From: Phoenix dactylifera
Taxonomy: Eukaryota; Streptophyta; Magnoliopsida; Arecales; Arecaceae
DNA: 64,000 bases
Direction of reading: 5' to 3'
Assembly: GCF_009389715.1 (NCBI RefSeq)
Contig: NW_024067666.1
Location: 3,389,001-3,453,000 of the forward strand
Below, one piece after another: positions 25,413-53,652 of this stretch. The notes below the pieces were generated by a model. The model had not been told where the DNA came from. It searched no databases and was given only the letters and a program-made list of their open reading frames with translations. Position 1 is the first letter of the stretch. Every line of letters starts with the position of its first letter. A program made the position numbers and the translations under genes.

Positions 25413-26233
25413 GGACTCTCATAATAAGTTATAGCTTGCATACATACACTTTTTTGAGCAATTTACCACCTTGTAAACCATTTCTATTGTACCAACCAAA
25501 AATATGGTAACAATAAGCTATATATCTGTTATTTATCTAGCTCTATCAAATATTTTTTATTAAAGTTAAAAGAAGAAATTGGTACATGTTCAAATTCCAA
25601 TGTCATCCTTGCCAAATAATATTGCTCGGTAAAATAGCTGCCACTTCCCCCTATCTTCCAACCATTAATTTATTTAGGATGTATTTGGTTGGCAGAAAGA
25701 ATTCATCCTCATTGGAATGCGTTTTCTAGGAAGTTAACATTTAGTGATTTTTATATATTTGATTGATTATAAAAAATAATATAAAATAATTTATATTTAG
25801 TTGGATATTTATTTTATTTAAAAAATATATAAAATATTTATTATATTTCTGATATTTTTTTTTGTCATTTTAGGATTCTGGCTGAGAGTTTCGGAGCACT
25901 TCTGAAAAAAACATAAAAATTAGACGTTCTTATATTCTTCATATTTTTTTATAAAATATAAAATTTTATTTATATTAAAATTTTAATTTTATTATTTTTT
26001 AAATTACTTATATATATATATATAGTGTTTATTGACCATACTTCTCTTTCCTTTTTTTTTTCTTTTTTTTTTTTTCCTACTGAACCAAATCTGGTTCAAA
26101 GGAAAGGCAAAGAATAATAATTAAAGAAAAGAGAATAGAAAGGGGAAAAGCCTCCGCATCCCTCGCAAGGAAGAACCCCAATCCGGTCAGTAGCTTCCGC
26201 ATCTACCGACACCCTCCTCCTCTCTTGAATCCG
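25413..26233. other. AT-rich spacer and presenilin-like 5' leader
   Basis: The DNA is AT-rich up to about 26080, then a purine-rich leader runs into the presenilin-like start. A TATTTGGTTGG near 25682 and an AACCAAATCTGGTT near 26083 could be MITE ends, but I cannot support borders. Confidence 0.35.
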
Positions 26234-27520
26234 ATGGCGCAGGACCCCGACTCCACCCCCAGCCTCCTCGACTCCCTGGGCGAGGAGATCATCCGCATCG
26301 TCGCCCCCGTCTCCGCCTGCATGCTCCTCGTCGTCCTCCTCGTCTCCACCCTCTCCTCATCCACCTCCCCACTCTCTTCCCTCGCCGCCGCCGCCTACTC
26401 TGACCCCTCATCCTCCTCCTCCGCCGCCTCCATCTGGGACAAGCTCTCCGGCGCCCTCTTGAGCTCCCTTGTCTTCATCGCCTCCGTCACCCTCCTCACC
26501 TTCCTCCTCGTCCTCCTCTTCTACCTCCGCTGCACCCGATTCCTCAAATCCTACATGGCCTTCTCCTCCTTTGTCGTCCTCGCGTTCCTCGGCGGCGAGA
26601 TCCTCCTCCTCCTCGTCACCCACTTCAGTTTCCCTATCGATGCTATCACCTTCTCCCTTCTCCTCCTCAACTTCTCCGTCGTCGGGGTCATGGCGGTCTT
26701 CATGACCAAGATGCCAATTTCCGTGAACCAGGGGTATTTGGTCATCATCGGCGTGCTCGTCGCCTACTGGTTCACTCTCCTCCCGGAGTGGACCACCTGG
26801 GCCCTATTGGTAGCCATGGCACTGTATGATCTTGCCGCTGTCTTGTTGCCTGGTGGACCGCTAAGGCTTCTGGTGGAGCTTGCAATCTCTCGGGACGAGG
26901 ATATACCAGCTTTGGTGTATGAGGCGAGGCCCGTGGAGCCTCGCCCGGGTGCGAGGAGGAGATTGTGGAGAGAAAGAAGAGATTATGGTACGAATTCAGG
27001 TTCTAATGCCAATCCTTCATCACTTGGAAACATGTCTCCGGTGACAGATGAAAGGAGAGATTTGGGTACCAATTCAAGTTTGAACTCCAACAATTCGATG
27101 ACTGGAGAGGCGTTGCCAGAGACGAGGTTGGTTATCAGTGAACAGGAGTCTGCTGGGGGTTCTTCGCGATCAGAGTTGAGAGCACCCTTGGTGCAAACCC
27201 AATTAGATAGTCGTGGAGAAGGGGAAATTGAAGGAATTGGATTGGGTTCATCAGGGGCGATCAAGTTAGGGTTGGGGGATTTTATCTTTTACAGCGTCTT
27301 GGTTGGGAGGGCGGCGATGTATGATTTCATGACAGTGTATGCTTGTTATCTTGCTATTATAGCTGGACTTGGTATCACTCTGTTACTTTTAGCATTCTAT
27401 CGGAAGGCATTGCCTGCTCTTCCGGTGTCTATAATGCTTGGTGTGTTCGTTTATTTTTTGACCAGGGTCTTGCTAGAGGTGTTTGTGGTCCAGTGTTCAA
27501 CAAATCTATTGATGTTTTAG
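26234..27520 (+). CDS. Presenilin-like aspartyl intramembrane protease
   Basis: Presenilin is the catalytic subunit of gamma-secretase and cuts type I membrane proteins within the bilayer. In plants it sits in endomembranes and its substrates are little known. A single intronless frame encodes 428 residues. I take ATG 26234 as start, since it opens the family-like MAQDPD sequence. Hydrophobic segments alternate through residues 22-42, 78-98, 105-130, 137-157, 167-183 and 187-206, with three more after 342. The two catalytic aspartates are both present: D199 in LYDLAAVLLP and D349 in GLGDFIFYS. The PAL motif that shapes the active site is at 394-396. Between the halves lies a hydrophilic Ser/Asn/Gly-rich loop (about 225-340), where presenilins self-cleave. 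All key residues are intact, so it should be active. Lack of introns is usual for plant presenilins. Confidence 0.94.
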   Translation: MAQDPDSTPSLLDSLGEEIIRIVAPVSACMLLVVLLVSTLSSSTSPLSSLAAAAYSDPSSSSSAASIWDKLSGALLSSLVFIASVTLLTFLLVLLFYLRCTRFLKSYMAFSSFVVLAFLGGEILLLLVTHFSFPIDAITFSLLLLNFSVVGVMAVFMTKMPISVNQGYLVIIGVLVAYWFTLLPEWTTWALLVAMALYDLAAVLLPGGPLRLLVELAISRDEDIPALVYEARPVEPRPGARRRLWRERRDYGTNSGSNANPSSLGNMSPVTDERRDLGTNSSLNSNNSMTGEALPETRLVISEQESAGGSSRSELRAPLVQTQLDSRGEGEIEGIGLGSSGAIKLGLGDFIFYSVLVGRAAMYDFMTVYACYLAIIAGLGITLLLLAFYRKALPALPVSIMLGVFVYFLTRVLLEVFVVQCSTNLLMF

Positions 27521-32466: not shown

Positions 32467-33257
32467 ATGAATGAGAAACCAACTGCTATCCAGGTTCCCA
32501 GACAGGCAAAGATTTTGCAGATCTTTTCAGTGTGTTGTATTTGTTGTCATCTCTGTGGTAAAAAAAATAATACATTTTATTTGTCTATTGTCACCTTTCT
32601 TTGTTCCTATTCTTCTTTAATTTTGATGTGGTATTACAGGATTTTAAGCCCAGACCAATTCAATTCCCTGTGTCAAAAAGATTCTTCCGCTGGAAGCACC
32701 AAGAGCAGCATGACCTTATGACAAGCAAAAAAACAATTACGGGTAGTAATTTTGAAAATCCCAGATCAGGAACAGTTGCTAATGAGCAGTTGTCAGTCAC
32801 CAAGATCTTGATTAGTGAAAATAAACATTTCTTTTCCTAGATACAGGATCAACAATAGCAGAATGCAGCTGTCTCTGGGAATGAAGTATTCGACAGGCAC
32901 AGGGAGTAATTCAGAATGTTGGCTTCTGCTAGTCTATGACCAAGCTCTTTTGTTCATGAAGAATTCCAAAAGCTCCATTGCTGCCACTGTTAATTACGTA
33001 AGACTTTTGTACATGGATTTTAAATTCTTCCATAATGAATTTACATGAATGCTGACCACCAGAAAGGATCTCCCCCTGCCCCCCTCCAACCTCGCCTTCG
33101 ATCTCAAGCTCACAAACCAACCTGACAGGTTGATCAACGACAGCATCAACAGCATCGAGCCTGGCAAGATCAGGTATTCAGGTGGCAGGACATTGCCAGG
33201 TTACTTTCACAGCCAGCCCTTCGGCCTGACCCTAGGTTCTTTCAGAGGCAGAATGTG
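32467..33257 (+). other. Unrecognised open segments, possible gene fragment
   Basis: Three open stretches follow each other on the plus strand: 32467-32535 (KPTAIQVPRQAKILQIF), 32640-32840 after an acceptor-like TGGTATTACAG (DFKPRPIQFPVSKRFFRW and on), and 33049-33258, a locally GC-richer frame (SNLAFDLKLTNQPDRLIND and IRYSGGRTLPGYFHSQPF). The composition is more protein-like than the surroundings, but I do not recognise a family. The last two cannot be joined into one long frame with certainty. It could be the remains of a host gene or the 3' end of an unlisted gene. Confidence 0.25.
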
Positions 33258-35321
33258 AATATGCCCTTCTCCTCCGAACTGCAGAAACCTGCTCATGATT
33301 TCTTAGTCAGTAAGAGGAGATGCTGCAATTAGCAGCAGCATGTTCTTTTAATTTACAGAAGCAGCATCACATAATTGCGGAAAATGCAAGAATGGAGAGG
33401 GAGAGATTCATCTATCCTTGCTGATTTAGTTGTAAGATTGAAAATCTAAACGAAACTCATTGTAGAAGATATGCGTGCACGTGTGTACAAAATCTCAAGC
33501 ACCACATGATTATGAGGTAGCAAATCAAGTAAAATGTCAGGTACAAAGACTTAATTCATATCTCTTGACATATGGTTATAACTTCTAACTTGCAGGCCAT
33601 TGGGACAACTGAACTAAAACCATGTTTCATAAAAAAGAACTAGGTAACCAGGCATGTGATTGATAACAAAACTCTACTTCCCCAATTTACAATCCCTGAA
33701 CCAAGTAAACAATGTTGTTTCACATTTGAAGTATACTTATGTTTCTTGTTTTGTGGAACTTTACAGATTTAACAGTTCATGACATCTAGATACTTTACTT
33801 TGAGTGCACATGTATCCCAGTAAGATGTAGTCATACCACATGAAAAACCATTCCCATTTTCAGCCAAAAGAAAAGGTTGATATAGATCAGCAACAAATGA
33901 CAGCAAGATGTCTGGATGAAGTTTTGAGCAGAAGATATGCTGTACCTTCATATAAAGCTTATTATGTTCCCTCATCTGTGGCTGTTCTGAATTGACAGTG
34001 GGGGCAAAGTCTACCAGTTAGCAATAACAGAGTTTGTCTAAAAGAGGGAGTTTTTCTAAAGAATAATGACTGCTTGCCTACAATGTGGAGGCACATGACA
34101 TGGCACCAATATCAAGAATAAAAGGGATATGGGAAAAAAAATTTAAAAAAAGCAAAAAAAATGTTTTTTTTCTTCTCATTGGACAACAATTATATTCTTT
34201 GCACTTGTGAAAAATTACAGTTGTCGTATGAAAATATGTATTCAAGGGACCTTTTACTTGTCTCAAGATAATTTTGGGTTGGGTTCTCTTGTTTCTTTTT
34301 TAATAGGCTTATGATTACTTTTATTCACTATCCATTTTACTTGCTTAAACTCATAATCCTTGAGTTTTTATTTTTGTTTTTTAAATATCCTTGATAAGTA
34401 TGAATACCCAGCTTAGCATATTTTGTGTCATCATCAAAAGAAGCCTTATTCTCTTTACATGTATGCAGACAAGAAAAACTAATCTGCAACATGGCTGACT
34501 TTTAACACTAGAACTCTTTGTAATTGTTCATGAGACATTGTTCTCTCATGTTATGCAGGCTATGCACAAAAGAACCTTTTTGCCGGTTTTATCAAAACAA
34601 GAAACTACAATGACTCATACAACCTTAAATAACATTTTCTAATTTACACAATACTGTAAAACACTAAAGCCTTCAGATTTTATATTTTTCTTGATTGCAA
34701 GTCCAATGTTTTGCTTGCAAAATAACCACGTTCCAAAATCATGAGACTTGAGTCATGAAATTCCCAAAATTCAAAGCATTCTTATAAATACTTAAAGCCC
34801 ACCTCATTCTTGGAGTTATCTATTTTCGCCGCGGTAACAGCACCCCCTACTACTACTCCAGCGGGGCATTCGCTCAAAGTTCACCCTAGAGGTTTCAAAG
34901 TATTTAGGAGCATTGCAAATGGACATGATCAAGACGTGCATTTCGGACTTGCATTCCGATCCATCTAGGACTCACATCCGGGTCCGCTAGGTCGCATGCC
35001 TCAAGTGGACGGATCGAGGCAACCGACGCGCCATGCACGACCACCGCTGCAAGCCGAAGGCATGTGAGCGGCAGGGCAACGTTATGCTGGAGCAAACATC
35101 GTTGAGGCAATAGAGCGCAGCAAGTCTGCTGTGAGCCAACGAGCATGCGGCTACAGTACAATGGGCCCGCCACGGCAGCAAATCATAATACCATCAAAAT
35201 CATCTTTTTAAAATAATAAACAATATCACTAAACACTATGCAAGTAAATTTACGATTTTGTTTTTTCCAAGCAATAAAACACACTTACCCCTAGCTTCCA
35301 ATATGTTTGTTTTTTCCTTAG
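33258..35321. other. Spacer; includes a GC-rich island of unknown origin
   Basis: It is mostly AT-rich without genes. About 34907-35175 is sharply GC-richer and is open on the minus strand for 89 codons (34904-35173), yet shows no known motif. It may be a fragment of a transposable element or of a foreign gene. Confidence 0.4.
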
Positions 35322-35640
35322 AGCTCGTTTGGTTTGCGGAAAAAGAAGAGGAAAAAGTGTGGCCAATGAAAAAGTAATGAGATGCTTCTTGTTTGGTTGA
35401 AGTTTTCAAAGGAAAGATATGGAAAAACTACTTTCTCATGAGGCGGAAATCATTCCATTTTTTACTTTTTTTTTCCAAAAAGCTCTTCAACATTAAAGAA
35501 GCATTAAAGAGACATTAAAAACCTAATTTTTATTAAGGGCATAATATGAATTATCCATAATTTTTATTGGAAAGTGGATGGCCGACCAAATATAAGCATT
35601 TTAGAAATTTGTCACTTTTTTTTAATCAACCAAACATGCT
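35322..35640. mobile_element. Possible MITE with GTTTGGTT ends
   Basis: The left end AGCTCGTTTGGTT and the reversed right end AGCATGTTTGGTT match at 11 of 13 bases. They enclose 319 bp of non-coding AT-rich DNA in front of the PB1-MuDR gene. Such ends are common in plant hAT and Harbinger MITEs. I found no convincing target duplication. Confidence 0.4.
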
Positions 35641-36287
35641 AAAAGTAATTTTCTAAATATTCTCTTTCTAAAAATTTATTTTTTAAAATTAATATTTTTA
35701 GAAGTAAAAATGCTTCCGGAGCCCACGCTGGCCTTTTGTCCGGTTTGGTGATAATAGGAAGGCGTGGATAAAGCGTACTTGAAGGGGAAAACGTTCGCAA
35801 ACTTTCGCTCCCAGAATACCCCCGGTCTACGTTATATCCCCATTCTGCCCCGACGATTACCAAAATTTCTCAAATGCCCCCACAAAGTTTCCAAACTTTA
35901 CTCCCTTCCCCTCCTCCTCCTCAGATTCTATTCCTCAAATGCCCCTCCCCCTTCCCACCTCCTCTGTACGGCCGATTCCGGCTGCCGGAGCTCGATCCTC
36001 CGCCGAATTCCGACGATCCAGATTGTACTTCCACAATCCCCTTTTTCCTTATTTCAATCCAATTATCGATGGTTTTCTTTCTGATTCGTTCAACTTTGAA
36101 TTTTTGTGCAGTTTTCTTCGATTTTTCTCCCAATTTACGATCCTCTTCGTTTTCTTTGATCCTTCAATTGCTACGAGGTAACCAAAATCGGAAGTGGATC
36201 CGGAATCTGGGTTCGGTTTCCAGGTATAGGGTTGAGAATTTTGGATTGGAGAGCTAGAATTAGGGCTAGGGTTTCCGAACTTTTAGT

Positions 36288-39200
36288 ATGGCGGGAGAGA
36301 AGGCGAAGCTCCTCTGTAGCTTTGGCGGCGAATTTATAAGCCAGCAGGGGAAGCCCTTCTATGTAGGGGGAAAAACTCGGCTGGTGTCAATCGATCGGTC
36401 TGCGAGCTTCCGATCCCTCCTATCAAAGATGTCGGAGCTCTGCGATGCCGATCCGAGCTCACTGGATATCAAATTTCAGCTCCCAGATGGCGGGCTTGAG
36501 TCGCGGCTCGTGTCGGTGGAGACTGATGATGATGTGAGGAATATGATGGAGGAGTTCGATTCTAATCGGAAAATTTCCATCTTTTTGTTCACTGATAAGA
36601 CACAGAACACAGATGATGATGACATTGCTGTCCAAGACGATGTGCCCACACTCGAAGCTGTTGCGACGGAGGCCGTCAGGTACTGCACCTCAATTACTGG
36701 AGTCGTTCATTTATATTTTAGTGGGAAAAAAAAAGAGAAGTATATTTGTTGGATCCTATATAAGCTTAAGTTACAAATTCTTCTTTCTTTGTGAATTTTA
36801 TTGAATTTTATGTAGATTGTTCGAATCTGGATTTTCCATAAAAAAATCAATTGGTAACTTTATAGAATTAATTACCCATAATAAAAAAAGTTTTCAACAA
36901 AATAATTTGACTATAATCTGAAAGATTGCACATTCTTCTTATTTAATTCAATTATAGTTGCTCTTGTCAGAAGTTGTTAAAAAATTTTCAGCTGAACCAC
37001 AGCCCAAATTTTTAATAATTATCGGATCATTTTTCGAGTCACTTATTTATGTAACTTTAGAAAAATATTTATTTTACCTGCTGTTCTTTATTCTGGATTT
37101 TGTTGAATTACTAAAGATTATTCCTAAAAAAGAAACTACAGAGAGCTGACAACTGCAGCAGCTGAAGAGCCGCTTGAGAGCCAAAGTGATCGAAGCACTT
37201 CGGCAACATCTGCCAGAAGAGATTATGGCAGACACTCATTAGTTGGTCCAAGCATGTCTGGAGAGAGATTTCGAAGAGAATCACAGTCATTAGTTGTCGG
37301 TCAGGAATATGAGGATGTGCAGACATTTCGAAATGCACTGACAAGTGCTGCCATTGCTGCTAATTTTGAGCTTCACATGATCCGATCAGATCAGCGCCGT
37401 GTCACAGCCAGGTTGCAGCCAGCATCATATCTATATGTATAAGCTATCATTATATTATTAAATGTATGAACTAAAACATAAATTATAGTTTCATTTCAAA
37501 TCATTTGATGAAGATTGGATAGTCAACCTCCCAGCCTTTTAGCCCAGAGTTCTAGCACAAGCTGCATATTTTTATTTGCCTATGAAAATGCCAGTTTATA
37601 ATCCTACCTCAAATTTACTCTCAAGATTGTCACCTAATTAGAATAGTTCAGAAAGAAACATTATGCTATGAATGCCAACAATGTAAGTGGATAAAATACA
37701 AGATGGCTTTTTTTCTTTAGATTCCATCTTCATTGAAACAAGCTTTCAGGAGATCAGTTAGTTTCAGGATACATTTTTTCAATGCTTACTTAGATCCTTC
37801 CTAGCAAAGAAGAGTTGCAGATAGCTGCAGCTCATATCATTCAAGGTTATCTCATTTTTGACTTCACACATGAAGCCTAGTCTATTGGATTCACATTGAA
37901 GGAATGAATGGTGATAGATTGTCTTTTTATAAAAGAAATCATAAATTTGTAAAAGAATAAGAGTCCCGAACTGCCTTTGACACCTTTTAGAACTATGAAT
38001 GCCATTGAAAAAAATCAAAGATCTGATATGTTTGATACCGCTATCTGGTTACATGATTTACATCATCTTTAAGAATATAGTCTGGTTTCTGAAGAAAAAA
38101 TTAGGGTGAACCTATTTGTATCTTGAGCTTTCTCCATATTTTATTTTTATGAAAGTCTTTTTCGTTGCGCATTATATTTTTCAAACCCATGTCTAATGCT
38201 CTGCCCATCCAAACTGATTTCCAAAGCTAGTATCTTAAGCTTGGATCGAGTTTCTTATCTGATCAGCTATCTTTCTAGAAAGTAGAAACACCCTATACAA
38301 CAAACCTCTACCAAAATTTCTAATGAACAGTCTTGTTGTTGTTGTGCTTATGTCTCTTTAAAACCAAATAATTTAAAATCCTTGGCTGCAAGGAATTTTT
38401 CCTATTTTAACGAACTACAACTCTATATGTCTTCCTTCAATGCCCTTAGTTTATGGGTTATTTTTCTACGTTGCTTCCAATTTAATGATTTTCTGAATCA
38501 ACTTATAAAGACCTTGATGGGTCGAAGTCCAGAAAAGAACAGTCTTTCCAACTTCACACGTCGCACAAAATGCAAATGAGAGCGCCCTTTTTAACCTGCC
38601 ATTTTTTATGTTCTATCATTTTCTCCTGCCATTTTACACAAGAGGCCCCTTCTTCCTCCAAATCCAACACCAAAACCTTGTCATACTTGGCTAAGTTACA
38701 AATTCTCTAGTTATTTCCTTCAGATAACCCATATGAAACCTTCCAGGCTTGTTTCCTCTATAGTCTATATTCTAATTCTTGCAACCCATCCCATCTATAC
38801 TCCCCTCTGCTCATCTTATTAAATTACTACCGGCAAACCTAGAAACCCAATTCTCTCAATATGTCCATCACAACTCGGACGTTTCTATCTTGTTGTCACG
38901 TTTCTTGTTTTTCACTGAAGTAGCTTCTATGTTGTGGCTGCTTGAATCAATGTTTGTCATGTCATTATGTCGCTAAGAATTTAATTTCTGGATATATTTC
39001 ACAGGTGTGCTGCAGAAGGATGCATGTGGCGTGTGCATGCATCAAAACTCCCACAAGTCAGCACATTTAGAATAAGGACCTTAACACCAGAGCACACTTG
39101 TGTAAGATCAGAAGATGCTGGCCACCGACAGGCCACTGCAAAGTGGATTGCCAACTGCATAAGAGACAAGCTTCGGCAAAATCGAAACTATAAGCCACGG

Positions 39201-39518
39201 GAAATTTTGAATGACATACACCGGGAGTATGGGGTGCTTATTACATACAAGAGGGCTTTCCTTGGCAGGGAGAAGGCATTGGAAGAGCTACGTGCTGAGC
39301 CAGCAAGGAATATGGCTCCCATAGAGAGCAGTTATGAGGCTATCATGGAGAACCATTCAGAAGTTCAAACATGGGGTCAGATACATGATCCCCCAAGAAA
39401 GAAACGGGCTTATAGACCCCATCAACCCAAGGAAGTGCGGCCATTGCACTGTACTCGGTGTAACCAGATCGGGCATAATAGAAGGACTTGCACAGTAGCC
39501 GAATCAATGCAAGGTTGA
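36288..39518 (+). CDS. PB1 / MuDR N-terminal / CCHC protein, MUSTANG-like domesticated transposase without DDE core
   Basis: Three exons (36288-36679, 37142-37411, 39005-39518) join in phase to 391 residues. Residues about 8-100 form a PB1 domain (KLLCSFGGEF, the basic patch near GGKTRLVSIDR, and IKFQLPDGGLESRLVSVETD). After a Ser-rich linker, residues 183-253 form the MuDR N-terminal zinc-binding fold: VGQEYEDVQTFRNAL, then C222, C227, H251 and C253 in a WRKY/FLYWCH-like spacing. The helical region to about 290 includes YKRAFLGREKALEELR, which in MULE transposases leads into the DDE domain. Here the sequence passes directly, within one exon, to a basic Pro-rich tail (DPPRKKRAYRPHQPKE) and a CCHC zinc knuckle (C370, C373, H378, C383). 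Neither a DDE transposase domain nor a SWIM finger is present. The PB1 plus MuDR pairing is typical of the host-owned MUSTANG-B group. Probable role: nuclear DNA-binding or regulatory protein, unable to transpose. This is inferred from the domains. Confidence 0.85.
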
Positions 39519-40149
39519 GCTTGTTCCTTGTTTCTTGCTTTATATTGTAACAGATTATTTCTCTTGTATGTTAGCATCTTGCAGTTGCTTTTGCTAAAAC
39601 ACTCTTTCATTTCCTTGCAGATGGAATCAGATAGGGCATATGTATCAGCAAGATAGCCCGTTTCAGTAAAGTTACAAGATGTAGATGTTCCATGGTCCTC
39701 AGCCTTCATATGGCTGGTGCGATGATTATTCATGCTTCCGTAAAGCTACCAATGAGGGGTCTTTACAAGCATTCTTTGAGGCGGAGAGTATCAGCTTCTA
39801 TCCATTCTTTCTTTCTTTCCCTCAAGATAATCAAATTAAAGAGTTTCAGTAACTGTATCATAAGGCAGATGTGCATTTGGCTACAGGATATAGACAAAAG
39901 CAAAGAATGTTTTGCAGTTATTATAGTTTGCTGTAAACTTTCAACTTTGCTGTCAATTGGAAAATAGATTTAAGGCTTTCAGAAAACCCAACGTATCAAA
40001 GTTTTCCTGACAATGTGGGAATGTCTGTTTCAAGTCAAGTGATTACTGCAATGGATACTTCAACTAAATATCTTCTCCGAACCATATGTTTGAATCGGCG
40101 CAACTGTCTGAAGTGATAATGTCTGTGCACTTGATGGAGGACCTTCCAA
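39519..40149 (+). other. 3' region of the PB1-MuDR gene
   Basis: No further coding exon is supported; the stop at 39516-39518 follows the zinc knuckle closely. A frame at 39692-39967 has no known motif. This stretch probably contains the 3' UTR, perhaps with an intron. Confidence 0.35.
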
Positions 40150-40450
40150 TAAGAAATTGAGATGCACTTTTGTTGGTTGCAAATATCAAAATCAGTAAAT
40201 TCTATTTTATTTGAAAATTGGAGAGTATTATTTTTATTTTTATTTTATTTCTATGTGGATTTCTATTGGGGTTTGGGGTCTATATAAACTATGGCTATGT
40301 AATTGAGAACACAAGTTTGCATTATTGAGATATGAGAATATTGAGTTACCCTCTTCTTTTTTCTTCTTCTCCTCCTTTTTTTTTTCTTCTCTTTTTTTCT
40401 CTCTTTCTTCTTCTTCTTCTATTCTGCCTTGGTTGGTGTCAGAGCATGCT
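40150..40450 (+). mobile_element. Copia-like LTR fossil, 3' part with primer-binding site
   Basis: A TATA-like box (TCTATATAAAC near 40278) is followed by a pyrimidine-rich leader. Then comes TGGTGTCAGAGC at about 40434-40445, one base away from the initiator-methionine tRNA primer site usual in plant Ty1/copia elements. No gag or pol reading was recognised downstream. It is a broken, old fragment whose outer border is uncertain. Confidence 0.4.
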
Positions 40451-43400
40451 ATTCTCCCTGCGACCTGAGCAAAGAATGATGAGGTAAACCTGTCTGCTGC
40501 TCAAAACAGGCAATGCTGAACTTGGAGAGGAAGACAGGATACAGCTAGCTATCTGTCGATGGAGTGATGGATGCAGCACTTATTTTTAATGAGAATTAAA
40601 TTATCACTAAGCAGTTGGTGTCTTTGATCCCATTAGATGTTGAGAACATTATACACATTATTATTTCGCTGAGGATTGCCCATTCTGGGAACCTGGGTGG
40701 GATAAACACTGAGGTCATCCTTTATGATGAGACAAACTAGGGCAAGGTCTTTTGCAATGTGAAATAGCATCCCTCGATGCAGTGGACTCTGCAATATTCC
40801 TAGTCCACCAACATTCAGATTTAAGTGAAACATATAATCTAACCACTCTATTATTGAATAACAGCAGCCATATCAAAACTGCTCGAGTGCTCGGAGCTTC
40901 TATAAACTTAAGAGTTTCTTCAGCTGCAATGTTTTTGCTGCACTTTGAAATAGGCTTAAAATTTTACTAGAAGATGGATGCTAGAAGGGACAAATCGTCA
41001 TCCTTTGGTTCACAATCGATCCAGTTATGTGCAACAAAAACATATTAGATCCAACAAATCTAGAATCTCACACTGAAAAGAACATAAGGGGAAAAAACAT
41101 ACTGATATGGACTGAAAAGTGACAACCATTATGGTTGCTAGCTGATGCTAGTCAAGAATAACAAAAAAGCTCCATATTGGTGTTCTTTGATTTTTTAAGT
41201 GAGATCTCGAAGCCACTACAACATTCCTGATCAAATTATTCATCCAACCGACAATTTTTTCTTCCCAAAAGCCTATCGATCTTTTCGGCTATCAGTATCG
41301 AGGGTGCCAACTGACTCGGTAAAACTACAGAGAATAGTCAATATTAGTTCATACCAATTATGTGATGAGAAGGTCTCTTTCCAATGAACCACCTAACCTC
41401 CACTTAGCCCTTGGAGTATTGGATGAGCCTACTTGCTATCAGTTCAACACATGGTCCCACCAAAGTCCAAACCCTAATGTGACCCAAAGCCAATCTCCAA
41501 GGTGCCTTCCCCATCTCATTCAGCTCTCACTGTAAGGGAGCTGAGTCCCACCCCACAGTGGACTCCTCATCGTCCAATATTTCCACCAAAAGTCTAAGCT
41601 TCAGGCCCCCCTCGCTCACTCTCCGTCTTTGGACTTAATTTTTTTTTTTTTTGGTAGCTTGGAGATGGTTGCAGGTCTCGCACGTTAGCTTTAAATGATC
41701 CAAGAGTTGCTTCACCTGATGTAATAATGATTTGAGTCCATAATAAAGAAAAAGGTGTATAAATTGATGAAAAAAAAGTTATCTTTCTCAGCCTTGAATG
41801 ATTGGAGATAAGTTTATTTGAGCATTTTACTCAATCATTTAGTGAGCCCTTACATTAATGGCCCATTGATAAAGGAGCATCCATGGTGGGGCCCATGTTG
41901 ACTAATCCATCTACTTACTTGTCTACATTGTTTTTTTTCTGGCCTTCCAATCCCTATCAGCTTCCTTACTCTATTACCATTACAACTAGATTTGTACTAG
42001 CTGTCTTGCATCGGTTTATGGAATCTCACTATAGCCTTATTTTGTTTAGGAGCACATTCCTTTGTTACAACTTAGGCCAGTTTATTCATATTCAAAAAAA
42101 AAAAAACTTAGGTCAGTTTATGCTTTCCTACATTCTAAGATGGAGGCATACGTACAAGCTCTTAACCTAAACTAGCTTTGTCATATCTTCATCATGGTAC
42201 ATGATGTACAATATGAGTGATTCACTAGCTTTAACAATAAATTTTTAGAAATAATTTTGTCTATTCATGATGGATGGTACCAATAATGTATGCTGTCACC
42301 TTTTCTAATCGGATACTCCCTACCACAAGTTTTATATTAGAAGCCTTGTTTGTGTATTGTAAAATTCATCCTATAATTTAAAAGGCACATGATGCCCCTT
42401 GACATGATCAATCTTGCATTTACTCAAGGGGTCTCTCTCTTTCTACTATTATATTTGGTAAAATATACCAAAAAATAATTTCTATATCTATATAGTCTTA
42501 AATAATGTACAATAGTAATGCCCATAATAGATGAGAATTACAGTCCACTATAACTATGTACATATCAACAACTTTTTTTGATTTTCATTTCTTATATAAA
42601 AAAGTTTTTTAGTATATGCTCGCGCTTCATTTTCCCAAATAGCTATTTTGCATCTATCTTCAAATTAGTAATTACAAAAATTTTGCTTAAAAAACATTTC
42701 TTAAACGGTTGTGCAAAATCTAGTAATTGCACCATAATTAATAAAGATTCACAAAAAAGGGAACGTACATTATGTAGGCTCATTTATATTGCCAATTAAT
42801 AAAGAATTATGTTAAGTAAGCCGATTTTGATATTTGTAACACCAAGTTTTATGCAACCTCCTTGATTGAATGTTCCCTCTTATTTTAAAGAGTTTTTCTT
42901 CACAATATTTTGAATGGACGGTCTTAAAAATCCCAAAGTTTCTCCAAACAACTGTTATAATAATAATTACCAGACAACGAACAACTTCCACTGCAGCCTA
43001 CACTTTTTTAAAGGTGCAATCTCTAGACTCAATCTTAGTCACCACGAGAGACACTACCAGTAGACTTTCTTCGAAATATAGCCATCATAGGCGATTCAAG
43101 ATAGCAACGATGGCTACTGTGGTTCCCAATTGGATTTATGAACATTTTATTAATACCATAATAATCAATTGCAGCAGGACAATAGTTTCTTTAATTTAAT
43201 TTCATTTACACCGGACCCAGGAAACCCCTTCGAATATTCGTAGGGACACACGGCCATCCTCGAGAAGGGAGCAACTATCGTGGACCCCGCCTTCTCCTGC
43301 CACGTGAACACTCCACGCGGTGCGGGACCCACATACCCTCGCCGCCCTCTTGACCGTCTGATGCACGTGTTGACCAGAGTCGGCGTTTCCATCAGCTCTC

Positions 43401-43500
43401 CCATCTCAAACACCAAACACAACTCCACACCACTCATCCTCCTCCTCCTCCCCCTTCCATGCGATCCTTGGTTGATATCGTCCTGTCAACCCCTGACACG
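40451..43500. other. Spacer before the receptor kinase gene
   Basis: About 3 kb of AT-rich DNA without recognisable genes. A T tract at about 41639-41653 followed by GGTAGCTTGGAGATGG could be a retroposed tail in minus orientation. GC content rises after 43200 as the receptor kinase promoter is reached. Confidence 0.4.
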
Positions 43501-43851
43501 TCATCAAAGGCAGGTTGCTGTTTGAGACCTGCACAGCTGATTCCTCCATCCTGTCGGGGGGCCCCCAGGAAAGATGGCGCAAGAGATCATTTAAAATTGG
43601 AGAAGGAAACCCGAAAAAGTACCCACGAAGCAGCAGCCATAGAAGAAAGACAGCCTCGTCTTTCTCCCCTCAAACCCCCTCAATTAGCGAAAATTATTTC
43701 CTACTCCTCCTCCTTCCCTCCCCTCCTTCCTCGCTCACCGATGCCCGGATAATTACCGCCGAGGCCTTCTCTTCCGAGACATTTGCCATTCTCATACCCC
43801 AAGAAAGGGGTTCGGGCGTGTCCGTTGATGCCCGGCCCTTCGCCGTCGGCG

Positions 43852-46800
43852 ATGGCGCAGCGCCGGCCCTCGGCTATCTCTTTGTTCCTTCTCTTCCTCG
43901 CGGCCGCCGTCGCCGCCACCTCGCCGGACGCGTCCACACGCGGCGAGGAGAAGGCCGCCCTTCTCCGGCTCAGGAGCTTCTTCTCCGACACTGCCGGCCT
44001 CCTCCGCCGGTGGTCCGCGGCCCCCGGCTCCGACCACTGCTCCTGGCCCGGCGTCTCCTGCGACTCGAGATTCCGCGTCGTCTCCCTCAACATCTCCGCC
44101 AGAGCGAGCGACGGCGCTTCCTCTTCTTCTTCCTGCTCCCTATCGGGGCCATTTCTGCGGGGCTGCTCGGATCCCGCCCGGAGGCTTGCCGGGAAGCTGA
44201 GTCCGGCGGTGGGTAAGCTCTCCGAGCTCAGGGTTCTTTCGCTGCCGTTCCACGGCTTCGATGGGGAGATCCCCGGCGAGATCTGGGGGCTGGAGAACCT
44301 GGAGGTGCTCGATCTTGAGGGGAATTCGCTCTCCGGCGCCCTCCCCTCGCGGTTCCCTCTGCGGCTCCGTGTCTTGAATTTGGCGTCTAATCTGATCCAA
44401 GGTGAGATCCCACTCTTCCTCTCGAGCTGTGCAAATTTAGAAACCCTAGACCTCTCTGGAAACCAGCTCAACGGTTCCATTCCTCGGTCTCTGGGTAATG
44501 CCTCCAAATTGAGAGAGCTGTATCTCTCTTTTAACCGGCTCGAAGGGTCCATCCCTGATGAAATTGGTGCTGGATGCCGCAACCTGGAGTACCTGGACCT
44601 ATCAGGAAATCGACTGGTCAATGGCATTCCTTCTAATTTGGGCAACTGCGCGGAGCTTCGAGCTCTGCTGCTGTTCTCCAATCTTTTGGTTGGTTCCATT
44701 CCCTCTGATCTTGGACAGCTGAGAAAGCTTCGAGTTTTAGATGTTTCAAGGAACAGCTTACGTGGCCCTGTGCCTGCAGAGCTTGGGAACTGCCTAGAAT
44801 TATCTGTTCTTGTTCTTCTGAATCTGTATGATCCGATGCCCAGCGAGGACTCTTCGAGGTTTGTCGATGATGATGAATTCAATAGTTTCGAAGGTGGGCT
44901 TCCTGAAAAAATCACGTCCTTGCCGAAGCTTAGGTTGCTTTGGGCTCCGAGAGGAATGCTGGAAGGGGACATTCCGAGCAATTGGGGTACTTGCGAGAGC
45001 TTGGAAATGGTTAATTTGGGTCAGAATCTATTCACCGGAGCAATTCCAAAGGTGTTGGGCCGATGTAAAAACCTTGAATTTCTTAACCTCAGCTCGAATA
45101 AATTGATGGGTTGGCTTGATGAAGAGCTTCCCGTGCCTTGTATGGCTGTCTTTGATGTCAGTGCGAATCGGCTGTCAGGCTCCATCCCAAGGTTTAGTTA
45201 CAAGCAGTGCCCTTCTTCTCAATTCTTACCCAATGACCTGTCGTCTGCTTATTCTGCATTCTTCACGTATAGGACTCATATGGGACTGCCTTTCCCTTCT
45301 TTTGAATCCGGTGGTGGCTTTGCAATATATCACAATTTTGGCAAGAATAATTTCACAGGTTCCCTGCCATCTTTACCGCTTGCCACCAACAGATATGGAA
45401 ACCAGACTATTTATGCATTTCTTGCTGAAGGGAATATTCTCAGCGGATCATTAAATGCCATTATCTTGGAGAAGTGCAGGAATTTGAATGGGTTGATCAC
45501 TGACTTAAGTAACAATATGATATCGGGTGGAATTTCACCAGAAATTGGTGCCTTGTGCAGATCTCTTATGGTTTTTGATGTAGCAGGTAATCACATCGCT
45601 GGAACAATTCCCCCAAGTCTTGGGTTATTGGGTAATCTCGTTAGTCTGGACTTGAGTAGGAACTGTCTTCAGGACAAGATACCTGCAAGTTTTAGCCAGT
45701 TGAAGAGCTTGAAGTATCTATCATTAGCTGGTAATAATATTAGTGGTCACATCCCCTCTGGCTTGGCTCAGTTACCATCTCTTGAGGTTTTGGATCTCTC
45801 ATCAAATTCTCTCACTGGTGAAATTCCTGGTGAACTTGTGAACTTGAGAAATCTCACTGCCCTTCTACTTAACAACAATAAGCTTTCTGGAAAGATTCCT
45901 TCTGCTTTTGCCAATGCTACAGCACTTTCCATGTTTAATGTGTCGTTCAATAATTTGTCTGGGCCACTGCCATTGAATGCCAGTACAATGAGATGTGATA
46001 GAGTTCTTGGAAACCCTTTACTCCAGTCTTGTCGGGTATTTTCTCTTTCTATTCCGCCATCAGATGTGGAGGGTCACAGCGAGGATTCACAAGCATATAC
46101 TGATCCACCACTAGGAAGCTCTCCTACTAGGAGTGGCAGTAGTGATTTCAGTCCTATTGAGATTGCTTCAATTACTTCGGCAGCAGCCATTGTTTCTGTC
46201 CTATTAGCTCTGATTGTCCTCTATATATACACAAGGAAATGTGCACCAAGGCCTGCCATCCAGTCTTCAGGAAGAAGGGAAGTCACAGTTTTTGTGGACA
46301 TTGGGGTTCCACTGACTTATGAGAGTGTTGTCCGAGCCACGGGGAATTTCAATGCAAGCAACTGTATTGGAAGTGGGGGATTTGGTGCCACGTACAAGGC
46401 TGAGATTTCACCAGGAGTTTTAGTGGCTATAAAGAGACTTGCGGTTGGAAGGTTCCAAGGCATGCAACAGTTCCATGCAGAGATCAAGACTCTTGGGAGA
46501 TGGCGGCATCCCAATCTTGTGACTCTAATAGGATATCATGTTGGCAACACAGAAATGTTTCTCATATATAACTATCTGCCTGGGGGTAATTTGGAAAGGT
46601 TTCTTCAGGAAAGATCAAAGAGACCTGTGAATTGGAGGATGCTTCACAAAATTGCTTTAGATGTTGCATGTGCACTTGCTTATCTGCATGACCATTGTGT
46701 GCCCCGCATCCTTCATCGGGATGTTAAACCAAGCAATATTTTGTTGGACAATGAATTCAATGCTTGTCTCTCCGACTTTGGATTGGCAAGGCTTCTGGGA

Positions 46801-47190
46801 AATTCTGAAACCCATGCAACCACTGGTGTGGCTGGAACTTTCGGATATGTTGCTCCAGAATATGCAATGACATGTCGTGTCTCTGACAAAGCAGATGTAT
46901 ATAGCTACGGCGTGGTGCTACTGGAATTAATCTCAGATAAAAAAGCCTTGGATCCTTCCTTCTCTCCATATGGTAATGGTTTCAATATTGTTGCTTGGGC
47001 ATGCATGCTGCTGGAGAAAGGCAGGGCACGTGAGTTTTTCACTGAGGGGCTGTGGGAGGTGGCACCCCATGATGATTTGGTAGAAACCTTACACTTGGGT
47101 GTCAAGTGTACGGTCGATTCACTTTCTATCAGGCCAACAATGAAGCAAGTTGTTGGACGGCTAAAGGAACTGCAACCCCGACCTTGCTAA
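43852..47190 (+). CDS. RPK2: LRR receptor-like serine/threonine kinase, RPK2/TOAD2-like
   Basis: It is a plasma-membrane receptor kinase of the group that includes Arabidopsis RPK2 (TOADSTOOL 2), which acts in CLV3/CLE peptide signalling, anther tapetum and embryo patterning. It is intronless. I favour ATG 43852 (MAQRRPSAISLFLLFLAAA), which gives a clean signal peptide and 1112 residues; ATGs at 43828 and 43783 are in frame and would lengthen the N-terminus. The ectodomain has an N-terminal cap with CSWPGVSCD, two LRR blocks, and an island near the middle where LRR text is interrupted, as in RPK2. The membrane segment is about residues 771-793. The kinase is complete: glycine loop GSGGFG (840-845), VAIK lysine 861, HRD 955-957 with K959, DFG 975-977 and APE later. 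It looks active, with the RD-type HRD arginine. It ends at TAA 47188-47190. Confidence 0.93.
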   Translation: MAQRRPSAISLFLLFLAAAVAATSPDASTRGEEKAALLRLRSFFSDTAGLLRRWSAAPGSDHCSWPGVSCDSRFRVVSLNISARASDGASSSSSCSLSGPFLRGCSDPARRLAGKLSPAVGKLSELRVLSLPFHGFDGEIPGEIWGLENLEVLDLEGNSLSGALPSRFPLRLRVLNLASNLIQGEIPLFLSSCANLETLDLSGNQLNGSIPRSLGNASKLRELYLSFNRLEGSIPDEIGAGCRNLEYLDLSGNRLVNGIPSNLGNCAELRALLLFSNLLVGSIPSDLGQLRKLRVLDVSRNSLRGPVPAELGNCLELSVLVLLNLYDPMPSEDSSRFVDDDEFNSFEGGLPEKITSLPKLRLLWAPRGMLEGDIPSNWGTCESLEMVNLGQNLFTGAIPKVLGRCKNLEFLNLSSNKLMGWLDEELPVPCMAVFDVSANRLSGSIPRFSYKQCPSSQFLPNDLSSAYSAFFTYRTHMGLPFPSFESGGGFAIYHNFGKNNFTGSLPSLPLATNRYGNQTIYAFLAEGNILSGSLNAIILEKCRNLNGLITDLSNNMISGGISPEIGALCRSLMVFDVAGNHIAGTIPPSLGLLGNLVSLDLSRNCLQDKIPASFSQLKSLKYLSLAGNNISGHIPSGLAQLPSLEVLDLSSNSLTGEIPGELVNLRNLTALLLNNNKLSGKIPSAFANATALSMFNVSFNNLSGPLPLNASTMRCDRVLGNPLLQSCRVFSLSIPPSDVEGHSEDSQAYTDPPLGSSPTRSGSSDFSPIEIASITSAAAIVSVLLALIVLYIYTRKCAPRPAIQSSGRREVTVFVDIGVPLTYESVVRATGNFNASNCIGSGGFGATYKAEISPGVLVAIKRLAVGRFQGMQQFHAEIKTLGRWRHPNLVTLIGYHVGNTEMFLIYNYLPGGNLERFLQERSKRPVNWRMLHKIALDVACALAYLHDHCVPRILHRDVKPSNILLDNEFNACLSDFGLARLLGNSETHATTGVAGTFGYVAPEYAMTCRVSDKADVYSYGVVLLELISDKKALDPSFSPYGNGFNIVAWACMLLEKGRAREFFTEGLWEVAPHDDLVETLHLGVKCTVDSLSIRPTMKQVVGRLKELQPRPC

Positions 47191-51002: not shown

Positions 51003-53248
51003 TCACAAGAAGCCCGACCGGGTTGGGTTGACAAGAATGTGCCTGAGGGGGTGAGCCACATTCCCAGCTCCCGCATGCCTTACAAACTCCGCGGGCGTGA
51101 GGAAGCTGCCATGGCACGCGCACACAATCCTCACCTCCTTCCCTTCCCCGTATCCGTAGAGGAACCCTTCAATCCTCCTCCCATTTGGACCATCCCCCGT
51201 CGCGGACACACGTGGCATCTCTTGCACCTCGTTCCACTCCCATCTCTCTCCTAATCCAAGTTGGTCTCCCTGCAATCTTCTTCGAGGATTCTTCTACCTC
51301 TCTCGCAGAGCCAACTGCTTCATGATTGCTATGCTCGGGCAATGAAGGGGTCGTTGAGGGACGACTCCTGACTTCTGCACAGCCATTTCATCCAAAGGCA
51401 TTCAACCCAGACTTAAATATGACAAGAGAGTCACAAATGCATAAAGAAGGGCAATATCTGAAGTTCCAACAGGATTCTTGCGAATTAGTCATAAAACAGC
51501 TAGCTTTTTGTTGGAACGGATTCACCAGAAGAGTCCGAATCTTCTGCGCAGGTGAAGGAGAAGCCCAATCCCAAAAATTCGTAGCTGTTATAACAGCTGT
51601 AAATTTAAAATTCAAATTTGTTGTTACAAATTTTTGAGATTGAGCTTCTTCTTCACCTGCACAGAAGACTCGAACTCTTTTAGCGTGTTCGTTCCAACAC
51701 TTCTCTACCTTCTGTTATATGGGTTGTACTTTGCAAGAGCCACATAATTCAAATTAATGCTTATCTTTAAGTTGGAGAACACATAAAAATATTGTGAATC
51801 TTGAGCTTTGTATCTTTTGTTCCTAATAAGCTTTTGTATCTTGACAGACCAATAGAGTTTTTTGCAATTTTTTTATAAAACAAAGAAAATATCAAAATAA
51901 TAAATTAAAGAAGTCGGAATAAAGGGCAAAAGGCAAATAAGTAGTGAAATAGTTATTTTTTCCCCTCTTGTAATTTTCTAATAATCAATAGAAAGAATTA
52001 GAAACAGTAAGTTACAGCAAACTAAAGATGTTTTAAGCAAAAAGGAAATGGAAAGGGCCACATACCGACTTCCTCGATTAACAAATAGCAGATGTTTGCC
52101 TAAAAGTAGGTGTAGAAAAGAAACAATTCTCCATCAAGGAAAACTAAAAACGAAAGCAAACCAAACTAAAGAACACCAACCAAGATTAATCAATTAAAGA
52201 CACGGTGGGGAGCCAAAAACCAAAAAAATAGAAGGAAAAAAAAAAAAGACCATAAGAAATCAATCAACACCCCAACCATCCACTTCAAAATTTCCTAAAG
52301 AGTGGGAAAAACAAGCAGCCAAGTAACAAGTCTCTTTCCAACTCAAATTACCATCAAACCCTAAGCCAATATACATCAGATTCCCATCATCAACTAAGTA
52401 AACAAGCAAGACCACTAGCTTGAGCATGATCTCTGAACATCTAAGTTGAAGGGAGAAAAAAGGATGGAAAATCTTGTCAATTAACTCAGCAAACAAGCAA
52501 GACCAGTAGCTTGAGCATGATCTCTAAACCTCTAAATGGTTAAGGGAGAAAAAAAGGATTGGATATATATATATATATATATTGTCATACTCCAGCAAAT
52601 ACTGGAAGTGCACTGAACTAAAATTGTACCTTGCACCATATGGCTCTCGAAATTGGACACACCAGAGGAGCTACTCCCCTGCGATCCGATGGACCACCGA
52701 GATGCTGGTCTGAAGCATCCGGATGCATCTACTTGCCGAGCACCGGCCGCCGTCGAAGCCGGTCCAGGGAGAACCCTACCATGCCCAGCATTCATTCCCT
52801 CATTAGAATTCTCCTCCCTCTGATCTCTCGCCACCAGCTTAGACAAATTTCTCCTCTCCGATCTCTTCCTCTTGACCTCCAATCTCTTCAAGCTCTGCAG
52901 CTCCTTCCTCTTTCTGTGCTCCTCCTCTGCCTCCGTCGGCAGCGAGCACGTCCTTGGGAGGGGAGCAGCCACCGGAAAGTCGTTCTCCGATGGGAACATC
53001 GACAGGGTGGCGATCGACGATGACCGAACAAGCCTCTTTTTTTCCTCGGGCTCCACTCCAAAACGACCGCCCAGAGACAACCCAAGACTAAGCTCAATCT
53101 CTTCCACCTCCTCTCCCGCCGCCGCCGCCGCCGCCGGTCGCTCATCATGACAACTATTACCTCCAAATCGCCTCAGAAAATCTCTTGGACGGCCCTCTAT
53201 CCTGCCGGCAAGCGCCTCTATCTCCCCTTCTGTCGCCTCCGCCGCCAT
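51003..53248 (-). CDS. Ninja-family protein AFP (ABI5-binding protein type)
   Basis: AFP/NINJA proteins are nuclear co-repressor adaptors. AFPs bind the bZIP factor ABI5 and recruit TOPLESS to damp abscisic-acid signalling. Exon 1 is 53248-52630 and the last exon begins at 51265 and ends at TGA 51003, giving 293 residues. The EAR repression motif [10 protein letters not shown] is at 51-60 and a basic nuclear-localisation stretch lies at about 112-133. The Ser-rich block [18 protein letters not shown] is at 187-203. The C-terminal domain runs from [17 protein letters not shown] to [18 protein letters not shown] (about 220-286). The linker between the blocks is shorter than usual for the family. 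A second pairing, donor after M204 (52637) with the acceptor TTGCAG at 51270, also keeps the frame (292 residues). A missed middle exon cannot be excluded. The 1.36 kb intron holds a near-palindromic MITE. Confidence 0.88.
51509..51699. mobile_element. 191-bp near-palindromic MITE in the AFP intron
   Basis: The two halves are inverted copies. Left TGTTGGAACG, AAGAGTCCGAATCTTCTGCG and CAGGTGAAGGAGAAGC are mirrored on the right with few changes over about 80 bases. The differing bases are mostly C or G in the left arm against T or A in the right. Only a short loop lies between the arms, so a transcript across it would fold into a long hairpin. It has no coding frame and no clear target duplication. 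Confidence 0.75.
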
Positions 53249-53652
53249 TGCGACAGAGAGAGAAAAAATCGATCCTTTTTCGTAATGTTTCGCTAATTCT
53301 CTCTTCTACTCGCAGTCTAAATAAGCTTCGATGCTGGATTTTGTTATGTTATAAGAAAGTGTAGCAACTCGGAAGAAAAACTCGTAAAACCGAGGAGAGA
53401 GAGGATAACGAATTGAGAAAATCAGGAAGAGTAAGAGATCTGTTGGCCTTCTCAAATCGAGAAAAGGATATAAGGATCTGTTAAAGAAGGCCAACAACAC
53501 GAGGTCCCAAGGAGATCGAGCATAGGAGCACAGAGATTAGAACAGAGGTGGTGGAAGAGATAAAAGAGCGAGAGAGATATACGCGGAGGGGGACGCGGAG
53601 AAGAAAGAGAGAGAGAGAGGGAGGAGATCTTTGTAAATCTAGATTGCGTAGC

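What the first reader, a model, noticed from the sequence alone, without database searches (positions are those of the whole stretch)
36288..39518. Domesticated MULE protein that lost its catalytic core in frame
PB1, the MuDR zinc-binding N-terminus and a C-terminal CCHC knuckle are intact, but the DDE domain and SWIM finger expected between YKRAFLGREKALEELR and the zinc knuckle are absent inside one continuous exon. So the loss is genomic, not alternative splicing. All remaining zinc ligands are kept, which suggests selection for a binding-only, possibly dominant-negative or adaptor role.
Basis: partly seen in the sequence, partly recalled or inferred. Interest (0 to 1): 0.72.

Follow-up and report, generated by a model that had tools for sequence, protein, structure and literature searches.

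The report
Transposase-derived gene without its catalytic core
A plant gene that descends from a jumping-gene enzyme has kept its DNA-binding head and two small binding modules but has lost the cutting machinery in between, so it can probably only bind; whether it is kept by selection is not yet proven.

Summary
A three-exon model (36288-36679, 37142-37411, 39005-39518) encodes 391 aa with PB1 (E 5.8e-12), a MuDR DNA-binding domain (E 2.3e-21) and a C-terminal CCHC knuckle. MULE/DDE and SWIM were not found, while two full-length paralogues score for both. Only 159 bp separate the last alignable pre-DDE residue from the knuckle, within one exon: the loss is genomic.

The label needs correcting. 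On the DNA-binding block the gene sits beside PB1-less (MUGA-like) paralogues of its own genome (100/99); grouping it with PB1-bearing (MUGB-like) ones is rejected (p-AU 0.004). Yet it has a PB1 exon, with a QLP motif absent from five MUGB-like PB1 exons, and a 1.6-kb intron inside the DNA-binding domain.

The DNA-binding domain is nearly as conserved as between full-length lineages, the helical segment less so, the remnant beside the deletion not at all. This suggests, without proving, an old loss with binding modules retained. FRF proteins are the precedent. Orthologues, dN/dS and transcripts could not be tested. New variant of a known kind.

The parts
36288..36679 (+). exon 1: start codon and PB1 domain (aa 21-101 by Pfam)
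36680..37141 (+). intron 1 (GT-AG)
37142..37411 (+). exon 2: linker and first part of the MuDR DNA-binding domain
37412..39004 (+). intron 2, inside the DNA-binding domain; no MULE/SWIM in its three + frames
39005..39518 (+). exon 3: rest of DNA-binding domain, helical pre-DDE segment, junction, CCHC knuckle, stop
39291..39392 (+). junction aa 317-350, where MULE/DDE and SWIM sit in the full-length paralogues
39450..39491 (+). CCHC zinc knuckle, aa 370-383
39514..39620 (+). possible alternative last intron, giving SMQDGIR and stop

Best explanation
The locus is a short, probably functional host gene of the MUSTANG kind. An ancestor related to the MUGA-like genes lost, within one exon, the DNA encoding the DDE domain and SWIM finger (net about 360 aa by comparison with L013). 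The gene carries an N-terminal PB1 exon. The protein most likely works as a binding-only nuclear regulator: the MuDR zinc domain recognises DNA, PB1 joins it to itself or to other PB1 proteins, and the knuckle adds nucleic-acid or protein contacts. Without DDE and SWIM it would act as a competitor or adaptor at sites used by full-length MUSTANG proteins. Shown: anatomy, loss at the DNA level, kinship of the DNA-binding block. Inferred: function, selection, binding, partners.
For: Open three-exon frame with domain-consistent splices. No MULE/SWIM found, with two positive controls. DNA-binding block groups with the five MUGA-like paralogues at 100/99; MUGB-like placement rejected, p-AU 0.004. 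DBD identity to the five MUGA-like is 39-41 of 72, close to the 41-48 of 72 between MUGA-like lineages, whereas the pre-DDE remnant is 1-2 of 22 against 12-14 of 22. Of residues invariant in nine paralogues the gene keeps 12 of 15 (DBD), 8 of 10 (helical), 0 of 4 (remnant) and 5 of 5 (knuckle). Net loss of about 360 aa: window aa 313 to 351 corresponds to L005/L013 aa 138 to 540. In a simple model an unconstrained frame with its splice sites would rarely survive 5% divergence (0.0006; 0.124 for stops and start codon alone). It lies among ordinary genes. Truncated FAR1-type FRFs keep only the DNA-binding domain and FRF1 binds a promoter element (PMC6000157 passages).
Against: No orthologue, dN/dS, transcript or protein evidence. 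The remnant may not be homologous where aligned, so its divergence may not date the loss. The helical segment is less conserved than between full-length MUGA-like lineages (24-28 of 64 against 33-42 of 64), which may mean relaxed constraint. Kinship rests on the DBD part: in the helical segment it is as close to MUGB-like (22-29 of 64) as to MUGA-like, and the knuckle does not discriminate (7-11 of 18 for both). The gene is a long branch (0.76). Two residues invariant in the nine paralogues, the proline of CPW and the tryptophan after the helical YxQ, are M and F here.
Confidence: 0.5

Rival explanations
1. A young deletion derivative on the way to becoming a pseudogene: the gene was full-length until recently, and its open frame and zinc ligands are leftovers.
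For: Survival of an unconstrained frame is likely while divergence is small (P 0.65 at 1% for stops and start alone). Single sequence, no orthologue. The helical segment is less conserved than in full-length lineages.
Against: The remnant next to the deletion has diverged far more than the DNA-binding domain (1-2 of 22 against 39-41 of 72), which a very recent loss would not give unless the segment is not homologous.
Confidence: 0.25
2. An ordinary, already catalogued unnamed plant gene: the short PB1-MuDR-knuckle protein is a widespread monocot family that databases hold as uncharacterized proteins, and only the literature lacks it.
For: The DNA-binding block is a separate branch outside the five MUGA-like genes (95/90).
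Against: The paper listings that I saw did not show such a form; no plant protein database was available, so this is weak.
Confidence: 0.2
3. A TE-made chimera: a MULE captured a PB1 exon and fragments of a MUSTANG gene (Pack-MULE-like) and the product has no host role.
For: PB1 of MUGB is thought to have come by transduplication (PMC8616336 passages). PB1 with a MUGA-side DNA-binding domain is unexpected. Short inverted pairs do flank the gene, the longest 34 nt at 71% (35183-35216 with 42880-42913).
Against: All 20 inverted pairs in 33000-43500 are 20-34 nt, many of them A/T-rich, as chance would give; target-site duplications were not tested. The order of the retained modules matches the full-length paralogues.
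Confidence: 0.07
4. Assembly artefact: a full-length gene collapsed at this place.
For: Single assembly, not checked against reads.
Against: The junction is in frame, the remnant is diverged rather than cut clean, and no displaced MULE/SWIM sequence was found in the stretches scanned.
Confidence: 0.03

Closest known systems
MUSTANG A (MUGA) domesticated transposases
   Same: DNA-binding block groups with MUGA-like paralogues of the same genome (L009, L010, L013-L015; label mine); same module order; knuckle HCxRCNQxGH as in L009, L010 and L013
   Different: No MULE and no SWIM found; has a PB1 exon; intron inside the DNA-binding domain
MUSTANG B (MUGB)
   Same: N-terminal PB1 in a separate 5' exon, MuDR domain, knuckle
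   Different: MULE and SWIM missing; DNA-binding block not MUGB-like (p-AU 0.004); PB1 reads KFQLP where the five MUGB-like PB1 exons read KYFLP or KYCLP; the published form has all three domains in one exon (PMC3435246 passages), although a sugarcane MUGB is tabulated with three exons, 720 aa (PMC3418495 passages)
FRS-RELATED FACTORs (FRF1-4) of the FAR1/FHY3 family
   Same: Truncated MULE-derived protein with DNA-binding domain but no transposase core and no SWIM; proposed to compete for sites (PMC6000157 passages)
   Different: Other MULE lineage (FAR1-type domain); no PB1 or C-terminal knuckle is mentioned in the passages seen
Shortened FAR1 genes (F and FM types, rice OFF)
   Same: Shortened MULE-derived genes; one, OFF, acts in rice fertility (PMC8599713 passages)
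   Different: Shortened by premature stop, or by frameshift and nonsense changes that alter exon-intron structure; here the loss is internal and the C-terminal knuckle is kept

Membership tests
MUSTANG (MUG) family | MuDR DNA-binding domain PF03108 | tested here: met
   75.6 bits, E 2.3e-21
MUSTANG (MUG) family | core MULE transposase domain PF10551 | tested here: not met
   not found; present in L005/L013 and the L001 protein
MUSTANG (MUG) family | SWIM zinc finger PF04434 | tested here: not met
   not found; present in L005/L013 and the L001 protein
MUSTANG A subfamily | groups with MUGA members | tested here: inconclusive
   100/99 with five MUGA-like paralogues, outside them at 95/90, long branch, unrooted; no Arabidopsis MUG sequence was available, MUGA/MUGB labels are mine, by architecture
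MUSTANG A subfamily | no PB1 exon | tested here: not met
   PB1 E 5.8e-12
MUSTANG B subfamily | 5' exon encoding PB1 | tested here: met
   exon 1
MUSTANG B subfamily | groups with MUGB members | tested here: not met
   clade with the five MUGB-like paralogues rejected, p-AU 0.00415
MUSTANG B subfamily | MuDR, MULE and SWIM in a single exon | tested here: not met
   MuDR split by a 1.6-kb intron
FRF-like truncated regulator (works like) | DNA-binding domain kept, core and SWIM absent | tested here: met
FRF family | FAR1-type DNA-binding domain | tested here: not met
   the Pfam scan lists PF03108 and no FAR1 model at E up to 1
Conserved domesticated gene | orthologues under purifying selection and expression | not testable with these tools
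   no plant relatives held; viral and bacterial collections gave nothing; the exon search of the own genome did not complete

The most novel reading that the evidence does not exclude
A third MUSTANG lineage that acquired its own PB1 domain, of the kind found in PB1 kinases and not from MUGB, and then shed DDE and SWIM, giving a standing family of oligomerising, DNA-binding-only antagonists of MUSTANG proteins, convergent with the FRFs of the FAR1 family.
Probability: 0.25. Interest if true: 0.6.

Novelty: new variant of a known kind. Interest (0 to 1): 0.45.

Why it matters
MUSTANG double mutants have growth and fertility defects in Arabidopsis, and most MUG proteins have lost at least one DDE residue (PMC3435246 passages), so what the retained core does is open. 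A natural relative that dropped both core and SWIM but kept the binding modules would separate the two roles and make the question testable: what does the core add if DNA binding and PB1 suffice? It would also show the same route (truncation to a binder) in two MULE-derived regulator families.

Tried and rejected
MUSTANG-B membership: considered first because of PB1; rejected on the DNA-binding block. Hidden DDE exons: none in the three + frames of 37000 to about 40360, nor in six open frames from 40731 to 43196. Second copy: apart from its own exons, tblastn gave no match in the window at E below 1. In the genome no other pair of matches 4-44 plus 42-67 was listed among 150 scored of 209 candidates. 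Ten partial or odd matches, picked by eye from the 150 rows, were fetched; I read all ten as the TE-type MULE (like L019-L022), not as nearer kin. Flanking repeats: 20 inverted pairs of 20-34 nt in 33000-43500, some of which flank the gene; I judged them chance, without a test of target-site duplications. Relatives in viral contigs, genome contigs and plasmids: none. PDB by sequence: four weak matches, best E 0.13, taken as chance. Single-sequence folds of exon 1 and exon 3 were of low confidence (mean pLDDT 46.7 and 46.8). The exon 1 fold search listed several PB1 chains among SUMO, superantigen and other folds, the best two not PB1 and none at E 0.001 or below, so I draw little from it. A PB1 tree against PB1 kinases of the same genome was wanted and could not be made.

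The tblastn test for PB1 exons in paralogues is weak: with the PB1 query it found 3 of 5 MUGB-like loci (L016-L018), while L011 and L012 were seen only by reading their open frames (the whole-protein query did span L012). The absence of PB1 from five MUGA-like loci therefore rests partly on the published gene structure (PMC3435246). The alignment and the counts use nine paralogues; L012 was left out of them, and L019-L022 too. Papers of which I saw passages: PMC3435246, PMC2528002, PMC3418495, PMC8599713, PMC6000157, PMC6446971, PMC8616336, PMC7051960; of the others only listings.

Full report
OBSERVATION. Three exons, 36288-36679, 37142-37411 and 39005-39518, join in phase over GT-AG introns and give 391 aa. 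Pfam finds PB1 at aa 21-101 (E 5.8e-12) and the MuDR DNA-binding domain at aa 181-244 (E 2.3e-21). A canonical C-x2-C-x4-H-x4-C knuckle lies at aa 370-383; no Pfam zinc model reaches its cut-off there (zf-C2H2_10 E 0.47, zf-CCHC_2 E 0.92). The second splice is supported by the profile: in the genome search exon 2 alone matches profile positions 4-44 (36.9 bits) and exon 3 alone 42-67 (29.4 bits), and spliced they match 4-67 at 75.6 bits. The exons are richer in G+C than their introns.

LOSS OF THE CORE. MULE PF10551 and SWIM PF04434 were not found in the protein, in the three + frames of 37000 to about 40360 with X at stops, or in six open frames between 40731 and 43196; the minus strand and the rest of the window were not scanned for them. 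The same scan gives MULE 8.8e-17 and SWIM 1.3e-10 for the full-length paralogue L005/L013, and 6.7e-18 and 2.5e-7 for the L001 protein, typed with its N-terminal repeat left out. In the alignment with nine paralogues the window protein follows them through the DNA-binding domain and a helical segment up to about aa 316 and rejoins them near the HCTRCNQIGH knuckle and the basic stretch before it. Only 39291-39449 lies between aa 316 and the knuckle, within exon 3. Window aa 313 to 351 corresponds to aa 138 to 540 of L005/L013, a net loss of about 360 aa. The loss is in the DNA and not in splicing.

WHOSE RELATIVE. The window lies in G000, contig C19:3389001-3453000, of a 773,078,369-base genome in 2391 contigs. 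That size and contig number fit the date palm assembly as I recall it; this was not tested. One search with PF03108 was answered: 150 matches scored out of 209 candidates; the best nine lie in open frames of 582-753 aa. I fetched 14 loci with flanks. Five (L009, L010, L013, L014, L015) show no PB1 hit at E up to 1; five (L011, L012, L016, L017, L018) have a PB1 exon; four (L019-L022) I take as TE copies from their numbers in the genome and broken frames. I call the first MUGA-like and the second MUGB-like after the published architecture (PMC3435246, passages). No Arabidopsis MUG sequence was available to check the labels, and the tblastn test for PB1 missed 2 of the 5 positives. On a 167-column block the window gene groups with the five MUGA-like rows (100/99) and outside them (95/90), on a long branch of 0.76. 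Forcing it with the MUGB-like rows costs 16 log units (p-AU 0.00415), and with the TE rows as much (0.00489). The tree is unrooted, so the gene is either a stem MUGA lineage or a third lineage. Against this: the signal comes from the DBD part (39-41 of 72 identical with MUGA-like, 26-30 of 72 with the four MUGB-like in the alignment). The helical segment favours neither side (24-28 of 64 against 22-29 of 64), nor does the knuckle (7-11 of 18 for both).

PB1. [quoted passage not shown] 'MuDR' had no occurrence in its main text (PMC7051960, 12 of 21 places seen), and its search listing shows none of 'transposase'. The window PB1 reads KFQLP; the five MUGB-like PB1 exons of the same genome read KYFLP (four) or KYCLP (one). 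The window PB1 matches three of them at 30-35% identity. This hints at a separate source of PB1. It is a hint only, because the search for PB1 genes in the genome did not complete. The single-sequence fold of exon 1 has the strand-strand-helix-strand-strand-helix-strand order of a beta-grasp but low confidence.

HOW OLD, AND IS IT KEPT. Two results bear on it. First, the DNA-binding domain is nearly as close to MUGA-like genes (39-41 of 72) as these are to each other across lineages (41-48 of 72), while the 22 residues next to the deletion are 1-2 of 22 identical with MUGA-like (3 of 22 with MUGB-like) against 12-14 of 22 between MUGA-like lineages. Of residues invariant in nine paralogues the window gene keeps 12 of 15, 8 of 10, 0 of 4 and 5 of 5 in DBD, helical segment, remnant and knuckle. 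The helical segment stands in between: 24-28 of 64 against 33-42 of 64 between MUGA-like lineages, so it is less conserved than in full-length genes. If the remnant is homologous as aligned, it has had time to erode while the DNA-binding domain and knuckle did not. Second, in a simple simulation the frame would stay open by luck with probability 0.65, 0.12 and 0.02 at 1, 5 and 10% divergence (stops and start codon only), and 0.22, 0.0006 and 0.0 (as printed) if indels at an assumed tenth of the substitution rate and the splice sites are counted. Together these favour retention by selection but do not prove it. A young loss, with a junction segment that was never homologous, remains possible.

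SURROUNDINGS. The neighbourhood holds ordinary genes: an LRR receptor kinase, a presenilin, DUF620 and a NINJA/AFP-type protein. There is no second copy in the window at E below 1. The 20 inverted pairs found in 33000-43500 are 20-34 nt; the longest (71% complementary) does flank the gene, and I take it as chance. Among the 150 scored matches no other locus shows the split domain. Ten partial or odd matches fetched by choice read as TE-type copies.

MECHANISM. Most likely a binding-only regulator: zinc domain on DNA, PB1 for self- or hetero-association, knuckle as an extra contact, competing with or recruiting full-length MUSTANG proteins. The steps beyond anatomy are inference. The precedent is FRF1-4, truncated FRS proteins with only the DNA-binding domain, one of which binds a promoter element and which were proposed to compete with FRSs (PMC6000157 passages). 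Shortened FAR1 genes can be functional (OFF in rice, PMC8599713 passages).

NOVELTY. The passages seen state that all MUG genes have MuDR, MULE and SWIM (PMC3435246). The listings of my paper searches (of these 25, 36 and 88 showed only 15 of 257, 8 of 135 and 10 of 46 papers) showed no PB1-MuDR-knuckle protein without the core. That library lacks most subscription papers; I did not see the 2016 MUSTANG phylogeny that PMC8616336 and PMC6000157 draw on. Sequence databases of plant proteins could not be searched, so it may well be present there without a name. I rate it a new variant of a known kind.

Noticed in passing
window 43753-47190 (+), antisense open frame 43704-45020 (-): Uninterrupted LRR receptor kinase frame of 1145 codons stop to stop (LRR and kinase by Pfam; RPK2-like by recall), with a 439-codon open frame on the opposite strand.
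   Followed up: no
window 26084-27517 (+): Presenilin in one open frame (Pfam E 1.2e-123, profile 3-408 of 408).
   Followed up: no
window 5396-6804 (-) and 52535-53305 (-): DUF620 gene in at least two pieces, and a NINJA/AFP-type EAR protein.
   Followed up: no
G000, L021 and nine further rows: Ten PF03108 matches are listed with an open frame of exactly 362 aa (one of them with a TAA inside the match), which looks like a recently amplified MULE family.
   Followed up: partly
window 37412-39004: An intron of 1.6 kb inside the MuDR domain, where the full-length paralogues and most TE copies listed are uninterrupted; its origin is unexplained.
   Followed up: partly
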